Shown one piece after another: positions 21,279 through 27,633 of a DNA stretch of 64,000 nt (position 1 is the stretch's first letter; every line of letters starts with the position of its first letter). The notes below the pieces were generated by a model. The model was not told the DNA's origin, made no database searches, and worked only from the letters and a program-made list of their open reading frames with translations. The position numbers and the translations under genes are program-made. The DNA comes from a bacterium (GTDB taxonomy: Bacteria > JAJVIF01): NCBI GenBank assembly GCA_022072165.1, contig JAJVIF010000001.1, positions 1,692,575-1,756,574 on the forward strand. The letters run 5' to 3'.

Positions 21279-22211
21279 TCACTCCGGAAACTGCATGGTC
21301 CCCCACCAGACCCACTCGCTGGCGGGAATGGATCGTTCCATGGGCACGCTCCGTGTGCCAGGAACGCTTCTCGCATTCTCGCTGGACCAGTCGACTTCCA
21401 TCACATGGAACAGCGGCACGTCGCCGCTGGCAAAGAGACCAAAGAGATTTCGCTCGGGATGGATCGCAAGTGAAACACCATTCGGCAGCGGATCGGGCAG
21501 CTGCGGGCTGGTTGCGGGCTGCCATGTGTAGCCGACCGGAGCTTGCCGGGAAGCGATGAGTGCCTCCTCCCAACTCAGAGGAAGTCGCTCATGGGTCCGA
21601 CCGAACAAGCCGAACAATGTGCCTACAGATCTTGATAATGCCCACTGCCGGACCCACGTCACTTTCGACGGCAGCGCCGCATCACCCTCTGGCTGATGCT
21701 CCAGCAGCACGGGATGCAAACGTGGTCCGAAGCCTGCCGGCATGGAGTTGTCGCCAATGGAACAGACGGCAACCTTTGTGGGGGATGGCCTTCCGGTTTC
21801 CGACGGGATGGTCATGCTGAGAGACTCGTCTCCCTCTGCCTGGAGCTCCCACCCGCTGATCGGTTGCAGCGGCGAGGCGGGGTCCGCAGGGGCATGTAGG
21901 ACCAGCTGATGCTCCTGCACCGCATCAAAGGCGGTCGTGACATCGCCCGTAAGAATGGCGGCCGCAGTAACAGCAAACCGGAACTGCTCCATCAGCGGAT
22001 CCCGGTCCAGCTGCGGCTGATGAACGTAGACAGGGATGCCGTACATCTCTGCCAGTCGCTCCGCAGTCGGTGGGACCTGGCCAGCCAGCGGGAACTGGGT
22101 TGCCGGAGGGACCCGGGCGGTCGCGGCGGCACTCAACGCCTGCAGCTGCTGGCATCCGGCCAGCAACAGCAGACTGCTCGAAACTACCAGTAGAGAACCT
22201 CGGTGCGTCAT
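21279..22211 (-). CDS. Lipoprotein of unknown family (paralogue 1 of 2)
   Basis: The 310-residue protein starts at ATG 22211 after AAGGAGA, so longer in-frame extensions are rejected. The signal peptide ends in LLLAGC, a good lipobox. The mature part has a C-terminal block LPLSWEEALIASRQAPVGYT and the terminal sequence WVWWGTMQFPE, both shared with the next gene upstream (22489-23373). N-terminal blocks (PPTAERLAEMYGIPV, EHQLVLHAPADP) also match. It was not assigned to any family. The pair arose by tandem duplication. Confidence 0.82.
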   Translation of the reverse strand: MTHRGSLLVVSSSLLLLAGCQQLQALSAAATARVPPATQFPLAGQVPPTAERLAEMYGIPVYVHQPQLDRDPLMEQFRFAVTAAAILTGDVTTAFDAVQEHQLVLHAPADPASPLQPISGWELQAEGDESLSMTIPSETGRPSPTKVAVCSIGDNSMPAGFGPRLHPVLLEHQPEGDAALPSKVTWVRQWALSRSVGTLFGLFGRTHERLPLSWEEALIASRQAPVGYTWQPATSPQLPDPLPNGVSLAIHPERNLFGLFASGDVPLFHVMEVDWSSENARSVPGTRSVPMERSIPASEWVWWGTMQFPE

Positions 22212-22308
22212 GTTGAAGTCTCCTTGCATCATCCAGTCTGTCCCAGGAGAGACTCCTGGCGACTCGTTACCCATTGGCCGCAAAACGTACCTATTGGGTA
22301 ATGATGTA

Positions 22309-22317
22309 ATGGTAGCA
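22309..22317 (-). promoter_or_regulatory. Extended -10 promoter of lipoprotein paralogue 1
   Basis: The minus strand reads TGC followed by TACCAT, giving a ~90-nt leader to ATG 22211. Confidence 0.45.
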
Positions 22318-22488
22318 AGACTCAGCAGCCGCTGCAACATCTGCTCATTGCCTCGGCTGTGCCCCGAACCTTCCAGGACGAGCCATCGCTTCGCTGTAGG
22401 GCTCGTGGTTGAGTCAGCATGGTCTGCCTGGTTGTCATCGACCACAGCTCCCTAGGCGAAGGCGCGGTTGGCTGGACGAGCCCTAGTC

Positions 22489-23373
22489 CTATTCCGGGAA
22501 CTGCATGGTCCCCCACCAGACCCACTCGTCGGCGGGAATGCTCTGGGCATGAGTTATAGACTTGACGTTGAAGCCTGTAGTGTCGCTCCATGTGAACTCC
22601 AACGCCTCTGTGCGGATCCCTGACTGTGCACTGGTGAACTTTCCGACTAACCGGCGGGCCGGATGAAAAGCCAGAGATACGCCTGCCGGAAGCTGGTTCG
22701 GGAGCATTGTTGTCGGAGCTGGCACCCAAGTGTAGCCGACTGGCGCTTGCCCAGTCGCTGAAAGCGCTTCCTCCCAACTCGTTGGGAAACGATCGTGCGA
22801 CAACAAGAAGTAACCAATTGTGGACTGAATGGCCTTGTGTGCCAGCCAATCTTTGAAAGAAGAAACCGTTGGGGGTGCAATTGTACTCCCCGCCGGGGTT
22901 ACTGAGAAATCCGCCCGCACGCGGTGGCCCAGCTTGGCTGCATTTCCATCAGTCTTGAGGGAACTTCCCACCACTCGGACTGCAGGAGACTCCGGCATTG
23001 AACCGGGTACAGTCAGGTATAGCATTTGCTCGCTGTCAGACCGCTCCAGCCTCCAGCCATTCACCGGTTGCAGTGCCGTGCCGGGGTCAGCCGGGACATG
23101 GAGCAACAGCTGGTGCTCAGTCACGAAGCCCGGAGCTTCGGAAATTTCTCCCGTGAGGGCTACTGCTGCCAATAAGGAATGCATCAGCTCCATCACGAGA
23201 ACCCGATTCTGCACTGACGGCGGCGGTGCGATTGGCAGTCCAGTCGCCTGTGCGACTCGTTCTGCCGAGGGCGGAAGTTTGGATACCAGCCGTTCCTGGA
23301 CCGGTTTCAACTGCTGGCAACCCTGTAGCAGCAGTGCCTGCAAGACCAAGGGAAGGATGATTGAGTGCTTCAT
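22489..23373 (-). CDS. Lipoprotein of unknown family (paralogue 2 of 2)
   Basis: This 294-residue protein starts at ATG 23373; AGGAG is present but ~13 nt upstream. The lipobox is LLQGC. It shares with its neighbour the blocks PSAERVAQATGLPI, TEHQLLLHVPADPG, SWEEALSATGQAPVGYTW and the terminal DEWVWWGTMQFPE. Divergence is high in the middle third, so the duplication is old, unlike the 1.44-kb repeat at 4154/7351. Conservation of the C-terminal Trp-rich end suggests it is a functional or structural core. Function is unknown. Confidence 0.82.
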   Translation of the reverse strand: MKHSIILPLVLQALLLQGCQQLKPVQERLVSKLPPSAERVAQATGLPIAPPPSVQNRVLVMELMHSLLAAVALTGEISEAPGFVTEHQLLLHVPADPGTALQPVNGWRLERSDSEQMLYLTVPGSMPESPAVRVVGSSLKTDGNAAKLGHRVRADFSVTPAGSTIAPPTVSSFKDWLAHKAIQSTIGYFLLSHDRFPTSWEEALSATGQAPVGYTWVPAPTTMLPNQLPAGVSLAFHPARRLVGKFTSAQSGIRTEALEFTWSDTTGFNVKSITHAQSIPADEWVWWGTMQFPE

Positions 23374-23447: not shown

Positions 23448-23972
23448 TTAAGTCTCCAGACCACAACACCCCCGCTCGTGACACTCCTCATATGTCGGTG
23501 AATAATTCCGCTGGCGTCGAGGGGGAACGTCACAATCAAGGGCCTCGCAGTCGTTGTATAAAATGGGATCGATCTCACGCGGCTCCCAGCCTATGCACTC
23601 AATATCCAGTGGGAAAATTGCCTGCCCAAACTGGTCACAGTCTAGCTGTGCCACAAAATTGAGGGGTTCTGAGGGTGGAGGACACGGCGGGTTGTTTTCT
23701 GGCTCCCGGCAGGCGGTGATCACCATGCTGTCGGAGTAACAGACAATGTCGGTGATGACTATCTGTTGGTCCCCCTCCACATTGCAGCTCCAAATGCAGT
23801 AGCCGACAGTGACTCCAAAATCGTCATAGAGCCAGTGCCTGATTTCATAACAGCATCCGTGAGCGCCTACATTCTGCGCCTGGGCGCCTGTTGTAGGAAA
23901 GACGTTCAGGACGAGCAAGAATACGAAGCAGCGAACCACCCGAAGGATTAGCGCCGTGTGAGAGGTGGCCAT
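23448..23972 (-). CDS. Secreted cysteine-rich protein
   Basis: The 174-residue protein has a Sec signal peptide (hydrophobic core VVRCFVFLLVLNVFPTTGA, likely cleavage after AQA near residue 33). The mature ~141 residues contain 14 cysteines, including CC pairs at both ends (AHGCCYE and RGCCGLET), a Pro-rich NNPPCPPP stretch and many acidic residues. This pattern suggests a small disulfide-stabilised extracellular protein. No family is recognised. The ATG at 23972 immediately follows four 10-bp tandem repeats in the leader. Codon use is less GC-biased than neighbouring genes by eye, so acquisition by transfer is possible. Confidence 0.75.
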   Translation of the reverse strand: MATSHTALILRVVRCFVFLLVLNVFPTTGAQAQNVGAHGCCYEIRHWLYDDFGVTVGYCIWSCNVEGDQQIVITDIVCYSDSMVITACREPENNPPCPPPSEPLNFVAQLDCDQFGQAIFPLDIECIGWEPREIDPILYNDCEALDCDVPPRRQRNYSPTYEECHERGCCGLET

Positions 23973-23975
23973 TAA

Positions 23976-24015
23976 CCGTTACCTGCCGTTACCTGCCGTT
24001 ACCTGCCGTTACCTG
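23976..24015 (-). repeat. Four perfect 10-bp tandem repeats in the leader of the Cys-rich gene
   Basis: On the minus strand CAGGTAACGG is repeated four times and ends 3 nt before ATG 23972. Each unit contains a Shine-Dalgarno-like AGGT. Copy-number change would alter leader length and the number of such sites but not the reading frame. Confidence 0.92.
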
Positions 24016-24030
24016 CAGGGCGATAGCAGG

Positions 24031-24036
24031 ATGATA
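24031..24036 (-). promoter_or_regulatory. Candidate -10 element of the Cys-rich gene
   Basis: TATCAT on the minus strand; a start ~7 nt downstream puts the four tandem repeats inside the 5' untranslated leader. The remaining gap up to 24374 contains a small GGTCGC/GCGACC hairpin near 24190-24204 and no evident gene. Confidence 0.4.
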
Positions 24037-24271
24037 GGGAATCGCCCTCACCAATGCAATAGCCATGAGAAAAAATTTACAGCAGGGTGAAACTGGCGGC
24101 CATCGGAGTCGGCTCGCCTTCTCCATCCACTTGCGACCGCGCCACCACGATGATCCAGAAATCGTCTCCCCTCCCCCCGGCACGGGGGTGGTCGCGCAGC
24201 GACCGGGGTTTCCGCGTGCTCCCGCAGCGACCACTCGCTTCCACAAAGATGCATAAGCGCCAGACACGAAC

Positions 24272-24280
24272 TGGTACCCT
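24272..24280 (+). promoter_or_regulatory. Extended -10 candidate for the MocR regulator
   Basis: TGG followed by TACCCT. If used, it excludes the ATG at 24249 and favours GTG 24375, which has a GGAG site 6 nt upstream. Confidence 0.35.
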
Positions 24281-24374
24281 CCGACTGGCCTCCTATTGGA
24301 CCTTTGCGGATCCTCCGCTGCCCCGTACCTTTCCCCCTGTCACTACACCACTTCGTCCGGGCCTGGAGCCAGTC

Positions 24375-25907
24375 GTGTACCTCCCGATCGATCACGCCAC
24401 CGAGGTTCCCCTCTACCAGCAGGTCGTGGATGGCGTCAAAGCCCTGGTCGATGATGGCCGGCTCCCCGCCAACACCCGGGTCCCCTCGTCCCGACAGCTG
24501 GCGGAAGAACTCGACCTCTCCCGCAAGACCGTCCTGACCGCCTACCAGATTCTGATCGCCGACCACTATCTGGAGACTCGTCCCCAGGCCGGGACCTTCG
24601 TGGTCGATCGCTCCGCGCTGAAGGAAGTCCAGACCGGTACACCGGCCACCCCGCCGCCGGTGGTCGATTCCTCCCTCTTCGACTGGTCCCCCTTCGCGGT
24701 CCCCAACACCTTTTTCGCCCTCCCCCGGCAGCGGGTCGCCACCGACCACGCCCTCGATGTCATCAACCTGATCTCCGCGACTCCGGATCCCCATCTCTTT
24801 CCCTTCGACCGGATCAAGCAGATCGCCCAGACCATGGTCTGGAACCCCAAGGATTACTTCTTCACCTACGGTCACGCCCAGGGGTACCAGCCGCTGGTGG
24901 AGCATCTGGAGCAGCGGATGGCGCTGGAAGGGGTCGCCATGGCCCCAGGGCAGAACGACATCGTGCTGGTCACCGGCTTCCAGAAGGGGCTCCATCTCCT
25001 GATCGATCTGTTGGCCCAGCCTGGCGATGTCTTCGCGGTGGAGCAGCCGACCTACGCCAGCATTCTCAATCTCCTGATGGCCCGACGGCTGGACTATGTC
25101 GGCATCCCCATGGACCGCGAGGGGATGCGCCTGGATCGGCTGGAAGCCGCCCTGAAGCAGCAACAAATACGGGCGATCATCACGATTCCGACCTGCCATA
25201 ACCCCACCGGCACCACGATGTCGCTGGAGCGCCGGGAGCAGTTGCTGGCGCTGGCCGGACAATATCAGGTCCCGGTCATCGAGGACGACTACGCCCTGGA
25301 CCTCCGCTTTGATGGCCCCCGGCTCCCCAGCCTCAAAGCGCTGGACCAGTCCGGCCTGGTCCTGCACATCGGATCGTTCTCCAAAGTCTTCCTGCCAGGC
25401 CTTCGCCTCGGCTGGATCACCGCCCCGAGCCCGGCCGCCCTGGAGCTGGTCCGCCTCAAGCGGGCAGTCGACCAGAGCGACAGCTACTTCCTCCAGGCGT
25501 TCCAGCACGAGTTCATCAAACGGGGGTACTACGACCAGCATGTCCGCCTCGTCACCCGCACCTATCAGTCGCGGCGCGACGCGCTCATCGAGGGACTCGC
25601 CCATTACCTCCCGCCGGGCATCGGCTTTTCCCGCCCCCAGGGAGGCTTGAGCCTCTGGGTCGACCTCCCCGCCCCCTGGCAGTCCCTGCCGGTCTACCAC
25701 CTCGCCCGGGAAGAAGGCGTCGAGATCGGGGTCGCGCCTTTCTTCATGCCGGGCAAATCCGATACTTCCGGCTTTCGGCTGGCCTACAGCCTCCATAGCG
25801 AAGCCTCCCTGAAGGAGGCCGCCCGTCGACTGGGACAGGCGCTAACCCGACTGTCCGATGATCCGACACTGTACGAGCATTACGCAGCGACCTGGCCCCA
25901 TCTGTGA
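24375..25907 (+). CDS. MocR/GntR-type PLP-dependent transcriptional regulator
   Basis: From GTG 24375 the protein has 510 residues, normal for the family. Residues ~10-78 form a GntR winged helix-turn-helix (PLYQQVVDGVKALVDDGRLP, then PSSRQLAEELDLSRKT). Residues ~130-500 form a fold-type I aminotransferase-like domain with the PLP lysine K337 in SFSKVFLPGLRLG, Asn276 in HNPTG and Asp/Tyr in EDDYALD (303-309). MocR proteins commonly control vitamin B6 or amino-acid metabolism, but no such target gene is adjacent. ATG 24249 in the same frame would add a Pro-rich 42-residue extension and is the alternative. Confidence 0.9.
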   Translation: MYLPIDHATEVPLYQQVVDGVKALVDDGRLPANTRVPSSRQLAEELDLSRKTVLTAYQILIADHYLETRPQAGTFVVDRSALKEVQTGTPATPPPVVDSSLFDWSPFAVPNTFFALPRQRVATDHALDVINLISATPDPHLFPFDRIKQIAQTMVWNPKDYFFTYGHAQGYQPLVEHLEQRMALEGVAMAPGQNDIVLVTGFQKGLHLLIDLLAQPGDVFAVEQPTYASILNLLMARRLDYVGIPMDREGMRLDRLEAALKQQQIRAIITIPTCHNPTGTTMSLERREQLLALAGQYQVPVIEDDYALDLRFDGPRLPSLKALDQSGLVLHIGSFSKVFLPGLRLGWITAPSPAALELVRLKRAVDQSDSYFLQAFQHEFIKRGYYDQHVRLVTRTYQSRRDALIEGLAHYLPPGIGFSRPQGGLSLWVDLPAPWQSLPVYHLAREEGVEIGVAPFFMPGKSDTSGFRLAYSLHSEASLKEAARRLGQALTRLSDDPTLYEHYAATWPHL

Positions 25908-25980
25908 GGTATCTCAGGTGAGCCACACCCATCATCCAGCAACCTGTTCTGCGTCAGATCTGATCCTGAAGGAGTCTCCC

Positions 25981-27633
25981 ATGCTGTCCCGACTCTCCAG
26001 CCGCCACTCCCGTGCCTGGCTGCTGCTCACGCTGCTAAGCACGATCACCCTCCTCTCCGCCTGTGGTGGCGGCGGAGGGGGCACGACCAATCCCCCACCC
26101 GGAACACCGGCAGGCACCGTGACTGGCCAGGTGTTGCTGGGGGGTGGCCTGCCGATTCTGGCGCAGGGTGATGGCACCCGCGCCTCCACCCGCATCATCG
26201 ATCCGCAGGACATCATTGCGTCCCTCCCCGCCCCCGTGAATGTCGGCAGCGATGGCCGCTTCACCATCACGAAGGTCCCGGCCCGCACCACCCCGCTCTA
26301 TCTCCAGCTCCGATTCACCACGAACCGGAACCTGAAGACCGGCGGCGGCGGCACGACTCCGGTCGCCCTCAACATCCCGGTGGTCGTCACTGATGGCGGC
26401 ACCGTGCAGGTCAACGCGAACCTGAATGAGGCCACGATCACCACGGCGATCCGGATGGGTGTGGCCTATACCGGTCCCGATGGACGCCGGGAGACCCTGG
26501 CGATGGTCCGCTTCGATGACAACACCGTCAGCGCTGACCTCAACGGCGATGGTCAGTTCAGTGATGATGTCGCCCCCGACAACAACAACGATGGACTGGG
26601 CGATGACCGCAACAAGTACGACGACAACCCGGGGGCGTACAACGAAATCGAGCGCGAAGGTGCCATCACTGCCATCACCAATGATCGGGTGACCATCGGC
26701 GGCATCGTCTTCCGCATCACTGCCTCTACCAGCATCCTGGGAGAGGACAACCAGACACTGAAGCTCTCAGATTTCAATGTCGGCGACCTCGCCGAAGCCG
26801 AAGGCTTCGCACTCCCCGGCAGCAACGATGTCCTGGCGAAAAAGCTTAAGGCGGAGGACCGCCTGGATGATGACGACCCCGTGAATCCGACACCGGGAGG
26901 CCGGGAAGTGGAGCGCGAGGGGATCCTGCTGGCGAAGACAGCGAACAGCGTGACGGTCCGTGACATCACCTTCACGGTCACCGCCGCTACTGCGATCTTC
27001 AACAAGGAGACCGATGCCCCCATGACCCTGGCGGACCTGCCGGTCGGCGGCTGCCTCGACGCCAAGGGGAATCGCACCGCAGATGGGATCGTCGCCACCC
27101 GCCTCCGCTACGACCCCACCTGTGATGATGGTGGCGCGGGCATCGAAGTCGAAGTGGAAGGGCGCATCACCGCCATCACCAGCGACACCATCACGGTCCG
27201 CAACAAAACTTTCCAGGTCATCCCGCCCCTGGAGATCGTGAACAAAGAAACGGATCAGCCGATCCCCTTCTCGAGCCTCAAAGTCGGCGACTTCGTGAAC
27301 GTCAAAGGGGTTCCCAGCGGTGACACCCTCCGCGCCACCCGGATCCGCTTCGACCCGGATGAAGATGACGACGACGGTGGTGGCGGCGGCGGAACCGGCG
27401 GGATCGAGATCGAGCGCGAAGGCACCGTCCAGGCGCGCACCAGCACCTCCATCACGGTCCTGAACACCACGTTTACGGTCAACGCCAGCACCGTCGTGGT
27501 CGACAAGGACACCGACCAGCCCGTCGCGTTCTCTTCCATTCAGGTGGGCGAGAAAGTCGATGTCCGGGGAATTCAGAACGGGACCTCCCTGGTCGCGAAC
27601 CGCATCCGGGTCGATCGCGACAGCGACGACTAG
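25981..27633 (+). CDS. Lipoprotein with four DUF5666-like repeats
   Basis: The 550-residue protein starts at ATG 25981 after AAGGAG. The signal peptide ends in LLSAC (Cys28), followed by a Gly-rich linker. Residues ~40-190 form a beta-rich domain and an Asp/Asn-rich stretch (DLNGDGQFSDD, DNNNDGLGDDRN) that could bind calcium. Four repeats of ~75-85 residues follow, each starting EREG/EVEG and ending VGDxxxVxG, in the style of DUF5666 (for example ITVLNTTFTVNASTVVVDKD and FSSIQVGEKVDVRG). Acidic linkers separate them (DEDDDDGGGG). Its role is unknown; it is probably an extracytoplasmic beta-domain protein. Confidence 0.87.
   Translation: MLSRLSSRHSRAWLLLTLLSTITLLSACGGGGGGTTNPPPGTPAGTVTGQVLLGGGLPILAQGDGTRASTRIIDPQDIIASLPAPVNVGSDGRFTITKVPARTTPLYLQLRFTTNRNLKTGGGGTTPVALNIPVVVTDGGTVQVNANLNEATITTAIRMGVAYTGPDGRRETLAMVRFDDNTVSADLNGDGQFSDDVAPDNNNDGLGDDRNKYDDNPGAYNEIEREGAITAITNDRVTIGGIVFRITASTSILGEDNQTLKLSDFNVGDLAEAEGFALPGSNDVLAKKLKAEDRLDDDDPVNPTPGGREVEREGILLAKTANSVTVRDITFTVTAATAIFNKETDAPMTLADLPVGGCLDAKGNRTADGIVATRLRYDPTCDDGGAGIEVEVEGRITAITSDTITVRNKTFQVIPPLEIVNKETDQPIPFSSLKVGDFVNVKGVPSGDTLRATRIRFDPDEDDDDGGGGGGTGGIEIEREGTVQARTSTSITVLNTTFTVNASTVVVDKDTDQPVAFSSIQVGEKVDVRGIQNGTSLVANRIRVDRDSDD

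What the first reader, a model, noticed from the sequence alone, without database searches (positions are those of the whole stretch)
23976..24015. Four 10-bp tandem repeats with SD-like cores in the leader of a Cys-rich secreted protein
Perfect copies of CAGGTAACGG end 3 nt before the start codon, and a -10 candidate places them inside the mRNA leader. Loss or gain of units by slippage would change leader length and the number of AGGT sites without changing frame, giving adjustable translation of a surface-exposed protein.
Basis: partly seen in the sequence, partly recalled or inferred. Interest (0 to 1): 0.65.

Follow-up and report, generated by a model that had tools for sequence, protein, structure and literature searches.

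The report
Lone ten-base repeat before orphan gene
Four perfect copies of a ten-base sequence sit just before the start of a gene with no known relatives; the repeat is real and unusual for this genome, but whether it varies or tunes the gene cannot be shown from the one genome available.

Summary
Four perfect 10-bp copies (41-bp perfect run) lie at window 23976-24016; read on the minus strand they are CAGGTAACGG and end 3 nt before the ATG (23972) of a 174-aa, 15-Cys ORF with a signal-peptide-like N-terminus (judged by eye). It is the only perfect array of four or more copies in 584 kb sampled from a 3.26-Mb genome, and the only tandem occurrence of this unit in the whole genome. A weak promoter-like site (TTGCAT-17-TATCAT) would put the array in a leader of about 52 nt. 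The genome uses GGAGG-like SD sites; the unit offers AGGU, improved to a bulged GGcAGGU at each unit junction. Added units leave the last site at a fixed distance from ATG, so 'more sites' is not automatically 'more translation'; folding predicts only mild competition that frees the last AGGU. No other genome searched carries the gene, so copy-number variation is untested. Best reading: a young slippage-made repeat whose last copies act as the ribosome-binding site, with possible modest tuning. Precedents exist (AGAT repeats in Moraxella uspA2 leaders; TAACTGA repeats in Beggiatoaceae). Ordinary to mildly interesting.

The parts
23976..24015 (-). four perfect tandem copies of CAGGTAACGG (41-bp perfect run to 24016)
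23448..23972 (-). 174-aa ORF, 15 Cys, signal-peptide-like N-terminus, no relatives found; in-frame TAA lies inside the last repeat so ATG 23972 is its most upstream start
24031..24036 (-). -10-like TATCAT
   Evidence: together with the -35-like hexamer reached by 3.6% of Markov controls
24054..24059 (-). -35-like TTGCAT, 17-nt spacer
24017..24048 (.). perfect 8-bp dyad AGGGCGAT-N16-ATCGCCCT spanning the -10-like site; candidate operator, its 7-bp-arm form is unique in the genome

Best explanation
A young short tandem repeat, made by replication slippage, that lies in the 5' leader of an orphan gene for a probably secreted protein. The last two units supply the ribosome-binding site (bulged GGcAGGU, 8 nt before ATG). 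Copies further up are identical spare sites: they do not strengthen the last site directly, but can compete with it for pairing to a short complementary stretch, so copy number could tune expression mildly. Shown: array, position, pairing potential. Inferred: transcription start, slippage origin, any effect on expression.
For: Perfect copies with sharp edges and no recognisable diverged neighbour unit (a diverged fifth unit is matched by 27% or 79% of controls, by two measures). Only tandem occurrence of the unit in the genome; single copies occur at 5 other places, near the roughly 6 that simple base counting gives. The 16S tail is GGATCACCTCCTTTCT, and GGAG lies upstream of 52 of 202 ORF starts against 15 of 202 in a control stretch, so SD-led starts are usual here; the array's best pairing in the SD stretch, -7.1, is exceeded by 33% of 201 ORFs and by 15% of their control stretches. 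Mean opening cost of the last AGGU falls with copy number from two units on.
Against: Promoter is weak and unproven. Cost of opening the whole start region barely changes with copy number. The ORF's codon score (0.003) is below the 5th percentile (0.046) of long ORFs, though far above its other two forward frames (-0.33, -0.36) and only slightly above the best reverse frame (-0.05), so the gene itself is only moderately supported. No population data.
Confidence: 0.5

Rival explanations
1. Neutral short tandem repeat: a slippage by-product between a promoter and a weakly constrained orphan gene, without effect on expression.
For: No relative carries the gene. Upstream regions of the neighbouring regulator differ between relatives: the G003 locus has its own imperfect array of period 10-11 (L016 3163-3225), while G001 of the same genus has no TRF array there, so such arrays seem to come and go. 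Opening cost of the start region is flat with copy number.
Against: It lies exactly where the ribosome-binding site must be and supplies the only SD-like match there.
Confidence: 0.25
2. Protein-binding array: repeats about one helical turn apart let a repressor sit side by side on one face of the DNA just downstream of the promoter, with or without the 8-bp dyad around the -10.
For: Period 10 is close to a helical turn; a dyad spans the -10-like site; a MocR/PdxR-type regulator gene is divergent next door and such regulators often bind direct repeats (PMC5320631, passages read).
Against: A different conserved element (ACTGGTA.CCT...ACTGG...ATTGG, window about 24269-24300) lies just upstream of the regulator gene in the three genomes with a close orthologue, this one included, is the better candidate for its operator, and does not resemble the array; the array unit is not dispersed in the genome. 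(Of the two other genomes, G001 L017 has c-to-a in one ACTGG.)
Confidence: 0.15
3. Post-transcriptional regulator site: an RNA-binding protein or ribosomal protein S1 binds the repeated leader, as proposed for TAACTGA repeats.
For: Same position next to a start codon as TAACTGA repeats in Beggiatoaceae (PMC4679880, abstract and passages read).
Against: Those occur as 169 sets in one genome; here the unit is tandem once and TAACTGA pairs are absent, so a network like theirs is excluded.
Confidence: 0.07

Closest known systems
AGAT tetranucleotide repeats in the uspA2 5' leader, Moraxella catarrhalis (Attia and Hansen 2006, as described in PMC4679880; original not read)
   Same: short tandem repeat between promoter and start codon of a surface or secreted protein gene
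   Different: there copy number varies by strain (6-23) and affects expression; here the unit is 10 bp, four copies, variation and effect unknown, protein of no known family
TAACTGA direct repeats of marine Beggiatoaceae, Cyanobacteria and Bacteroidetes (PMC4679880)
   Different: 7-bp unit with little SD character and many sets per genome; here a 10-bp unit with AGGU core and a single set
7-bp repeats in the leader of Haemophilus hmw1A/hmw2A (recalled, not looked up)
   Same: leader tandem repeats upstream of a secreted protein gene
   Different: known variation of copy number there; none can be shown here

Membership tests
variable leader tandem repeat (contingency locus, uspA2 type) | perfect short tandem repeat | tested here: met
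variable leader tandem repeat (contingency locus, uspA2 type) | repeat lies between promoter and start codon | tested here: inconclusive
   promoter only predicted, 3.6% of controls as good
variable leader tandem repeat (contingency locus, uspA2 type) | copy number differs among strains | not testable with these tools
   gene in 1 of 59 genomes; none of the listed relatives is closer than class
variable leader tandem repeat (contingency locus, uspA2 type) | expression depends on copy number | not testable with these tools
   folding models only
TAACTGA-type dispersed leader repeats | same unit tandem before many genes | tested here: not met
   one array only; TAACTGA pair absent
MocR/PdxR operator | array conserved upstream of orthologous regulators | tested here: not met
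   another element is conserved instead

The most novel reading that the evidence does not exclude
Copy-number tuning by internal competition: identical AGGU units compete for one complementary stretch, so each added unit frees the start-proximal site a little more while its distance to ATG stays constant, giving a stepwise, frame-neutral, slippage-driven dial on translation.
Probability: 0.1. Interest if true: 0.5.

Novelty: new member of a known kind. Interest (0 to 1): 0.2.

Why it matters
If variable, it would be a leader-repeat locus with SD-bearing units in a poorly sampled bacterial class and an easily tested case of expression tuning without frame change. As it stands it is one array in one genome.

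Tried and rejected
Dispersed regulatory motif: rejected, 9 copies of the 10-mer in the genome, 4 of them this array, the other 5 near chance. Horizontal or phage origin: the 30-mer of three units is absent from viral contigs; the one hit among genome contigs, Pseudonocardia sp. ICBG1293 (L005 2118-2147), lies about 55 bp upstream of an unrelated HerA/FtsK-like ORF (sub-threshold DUF87 match) in the opposite orientation to that gene, and one hit is what independent arrays in so large a collection could give (reasoned, not computed by a call). Known RNA element: no Rfam match in the window. Diverged fifth unit containing the ATG: not better than chance. Leaderless start below the array: best promoter-like match there 5 of 12. 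Known protein family for the 174-aa ORF: none in Pfam, NCBIfam, plasmids, or PDB beyond chance. Short upstream ORF ending inside the array (ATG at 24065, TAA in the repeats; the tail of the ORF 23989-24267): its ATG lies upstream of the predicted transcript start, so not pursued. Structure prediction not run: a single orphan sequence would fold poorly.

Full report
What is there. The window lies at C1:1692575-1756574 of a 3,260,764-base genome in four contigs. On the minus strand the sequence reads ...TTGCAT-N17-TATCAT...CCCTG (CAGGTAACGG)x4 TTA ATG GCC ACC.... TRF scores the array 82 with 100% match, best of its 26 rows in the window. Chance is negligible. In 584 kb sampled (the 64-kb window and 26 stretches of 20 kb) three perfect arrays reach 2.5 copies: this one, a 9-bp one and a 6-bp one, the other two with periods divisible by three. 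An earlier pass over 384 kb with a stricter rule gave two. Longer arrays that are imperfect or have fewer copies exist (best TRF score 356), so the genome is not free of repeats; what is unusual is a perfect four-copy array of a period not divisible by three.

The gene. The ORF has 174 aa and 15 Cys. An in-frame TAA inside the last unit (TAA CGG TTA ATG) makes ATG 23972 its most upstream start (sequence). No Pfam or NCBIfam family, no plasmid-encoded relative, no PDB relative beyond chance, and no relative in the 58 other genomes of the 59 searched, three of which belong to the same class and the rest only to the same domain. Its codon score is low for this genome but clearly frame-specific on its own strand; the best reverse frame is close. 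The next gene downstream has one paralogue beside it and none in the three class relatives.

Ribosome binding. The 16S rRNA ends GGATCACCTCCTTTCT, and GGAG, GAGG and AGGA are enriched before ORF starts (52 against 15, 37 against 12, 33 against 14, each of 202; starts chosen by rule, not verified). AGGT is enriched twofold (16 against 8). Pairing of the array with the anti-SD is -3.9 kcal/mol at the first unit and -7.1 at each of the three unit junctions, where GG-c-AGGU pairs with one bulge. The last junction is placed like an ordinary SD. Thus strength rises from one to two units and then saturates. A first fold series showed the last AGGU mostly paired at 1-3 units and mostly open at 4, 5 and 8. 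Over 30 combinations of leader start and 3' end the mean cost of opening that AGGU was 3.3, 3.9, 3.2, 1.8, 1.2, 0.8, 0.5 and 0.4 kcal/mol for 1 to 8 units, but the ranges overlap (2.1-5.7 at 2 units, 0.2-3.9 at 4) and the mean cost of opening everything from AGGU to 10 nt past the ATG stayed at 7.9-9.3. Any effect is therefore predicted to be modest.

Promoter and operator. The best sigma-70-like site in the 128 nt upstream matches 8 of 12 (TTGCAT-17-TATCAT), reached by 3.6% of Markov controls and 1.4% of window 65-mers; the stricter scan lists no minus-strand site. An 8-bp perfect dyad spans the -10-like site; its 7-bp-arm form is unique in the genome. The divergent neighbour is a MocR-type regulator (NCBIfam PdxR model, 329.9 bits against a cut-off of 320; 552-aa reading). 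Its close orthologues (52% identity, two genomes of one other genus) lack the array and share with it a three-part element ACTGGTA.CCT...AC.GG...CC.ATTGG, in the window at about 24269-24300. The paper on such regulators reports frequent direct-repeat operators (PMC5320631, passages seen), so that element, not the array, is the likely operator.

Comparison with what is known. Tandem repeats between promoter and start codon that affect expression are known in Moraxella uspA1 and uspA2, and TAACTGA repeats lie next to start codons in Beggiatoaceae (PMC4679880: abstract and passages seen). A search for papers joining tandem repeats, SD and copy number found only an unrelated chloroplast paper (listing only; one search, limited library), which does not prove absence in print.

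Verdict. Observation confirmed; interpretation partly supported; copy-number variation and any effect on translation remain untested. The array is most likely a young slippage repeat that happens to carry, or has been kept as, the ribosome-binding site of an orphan gene.

Noticed in passing
window 24269-24300: Conserved three-part element ACTGGTACCCT...ACTGG...ATTGG upstream of a MocR/PdxR-type regulator, shared with both close orthologues of the class; likely its own operator, which puts the regulator's start near GTG 24375 rather than 24087 or 24249.
   Followed up: partly
L016 3163-3225: Imperfect array of period 10-11 (AAACCCCCGT, about 6 copies) upstream of the orthologous regulator in G003, absent from the same-genus G001 locus L017.
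   Followed up: partly
window 25858-27633: Lipoprotein-like gene after the regulator with a sub-threshold 'lipo-invert' domain match; similar genes follow the orthologous regulators in L016 and L017 (by eye).
   Followed up: no
window 21279-23373: Two adjacent paralogous lipoprotein-like genes (40% identity) with no relatives in the three class genomes.
   Followed up: no
L005 2110-2150: Pseudonocardia carries three perfect copies of the same unit with diverged neighbours, upstream of a HerA/FtsK-like ORF.
   Followed up: partly
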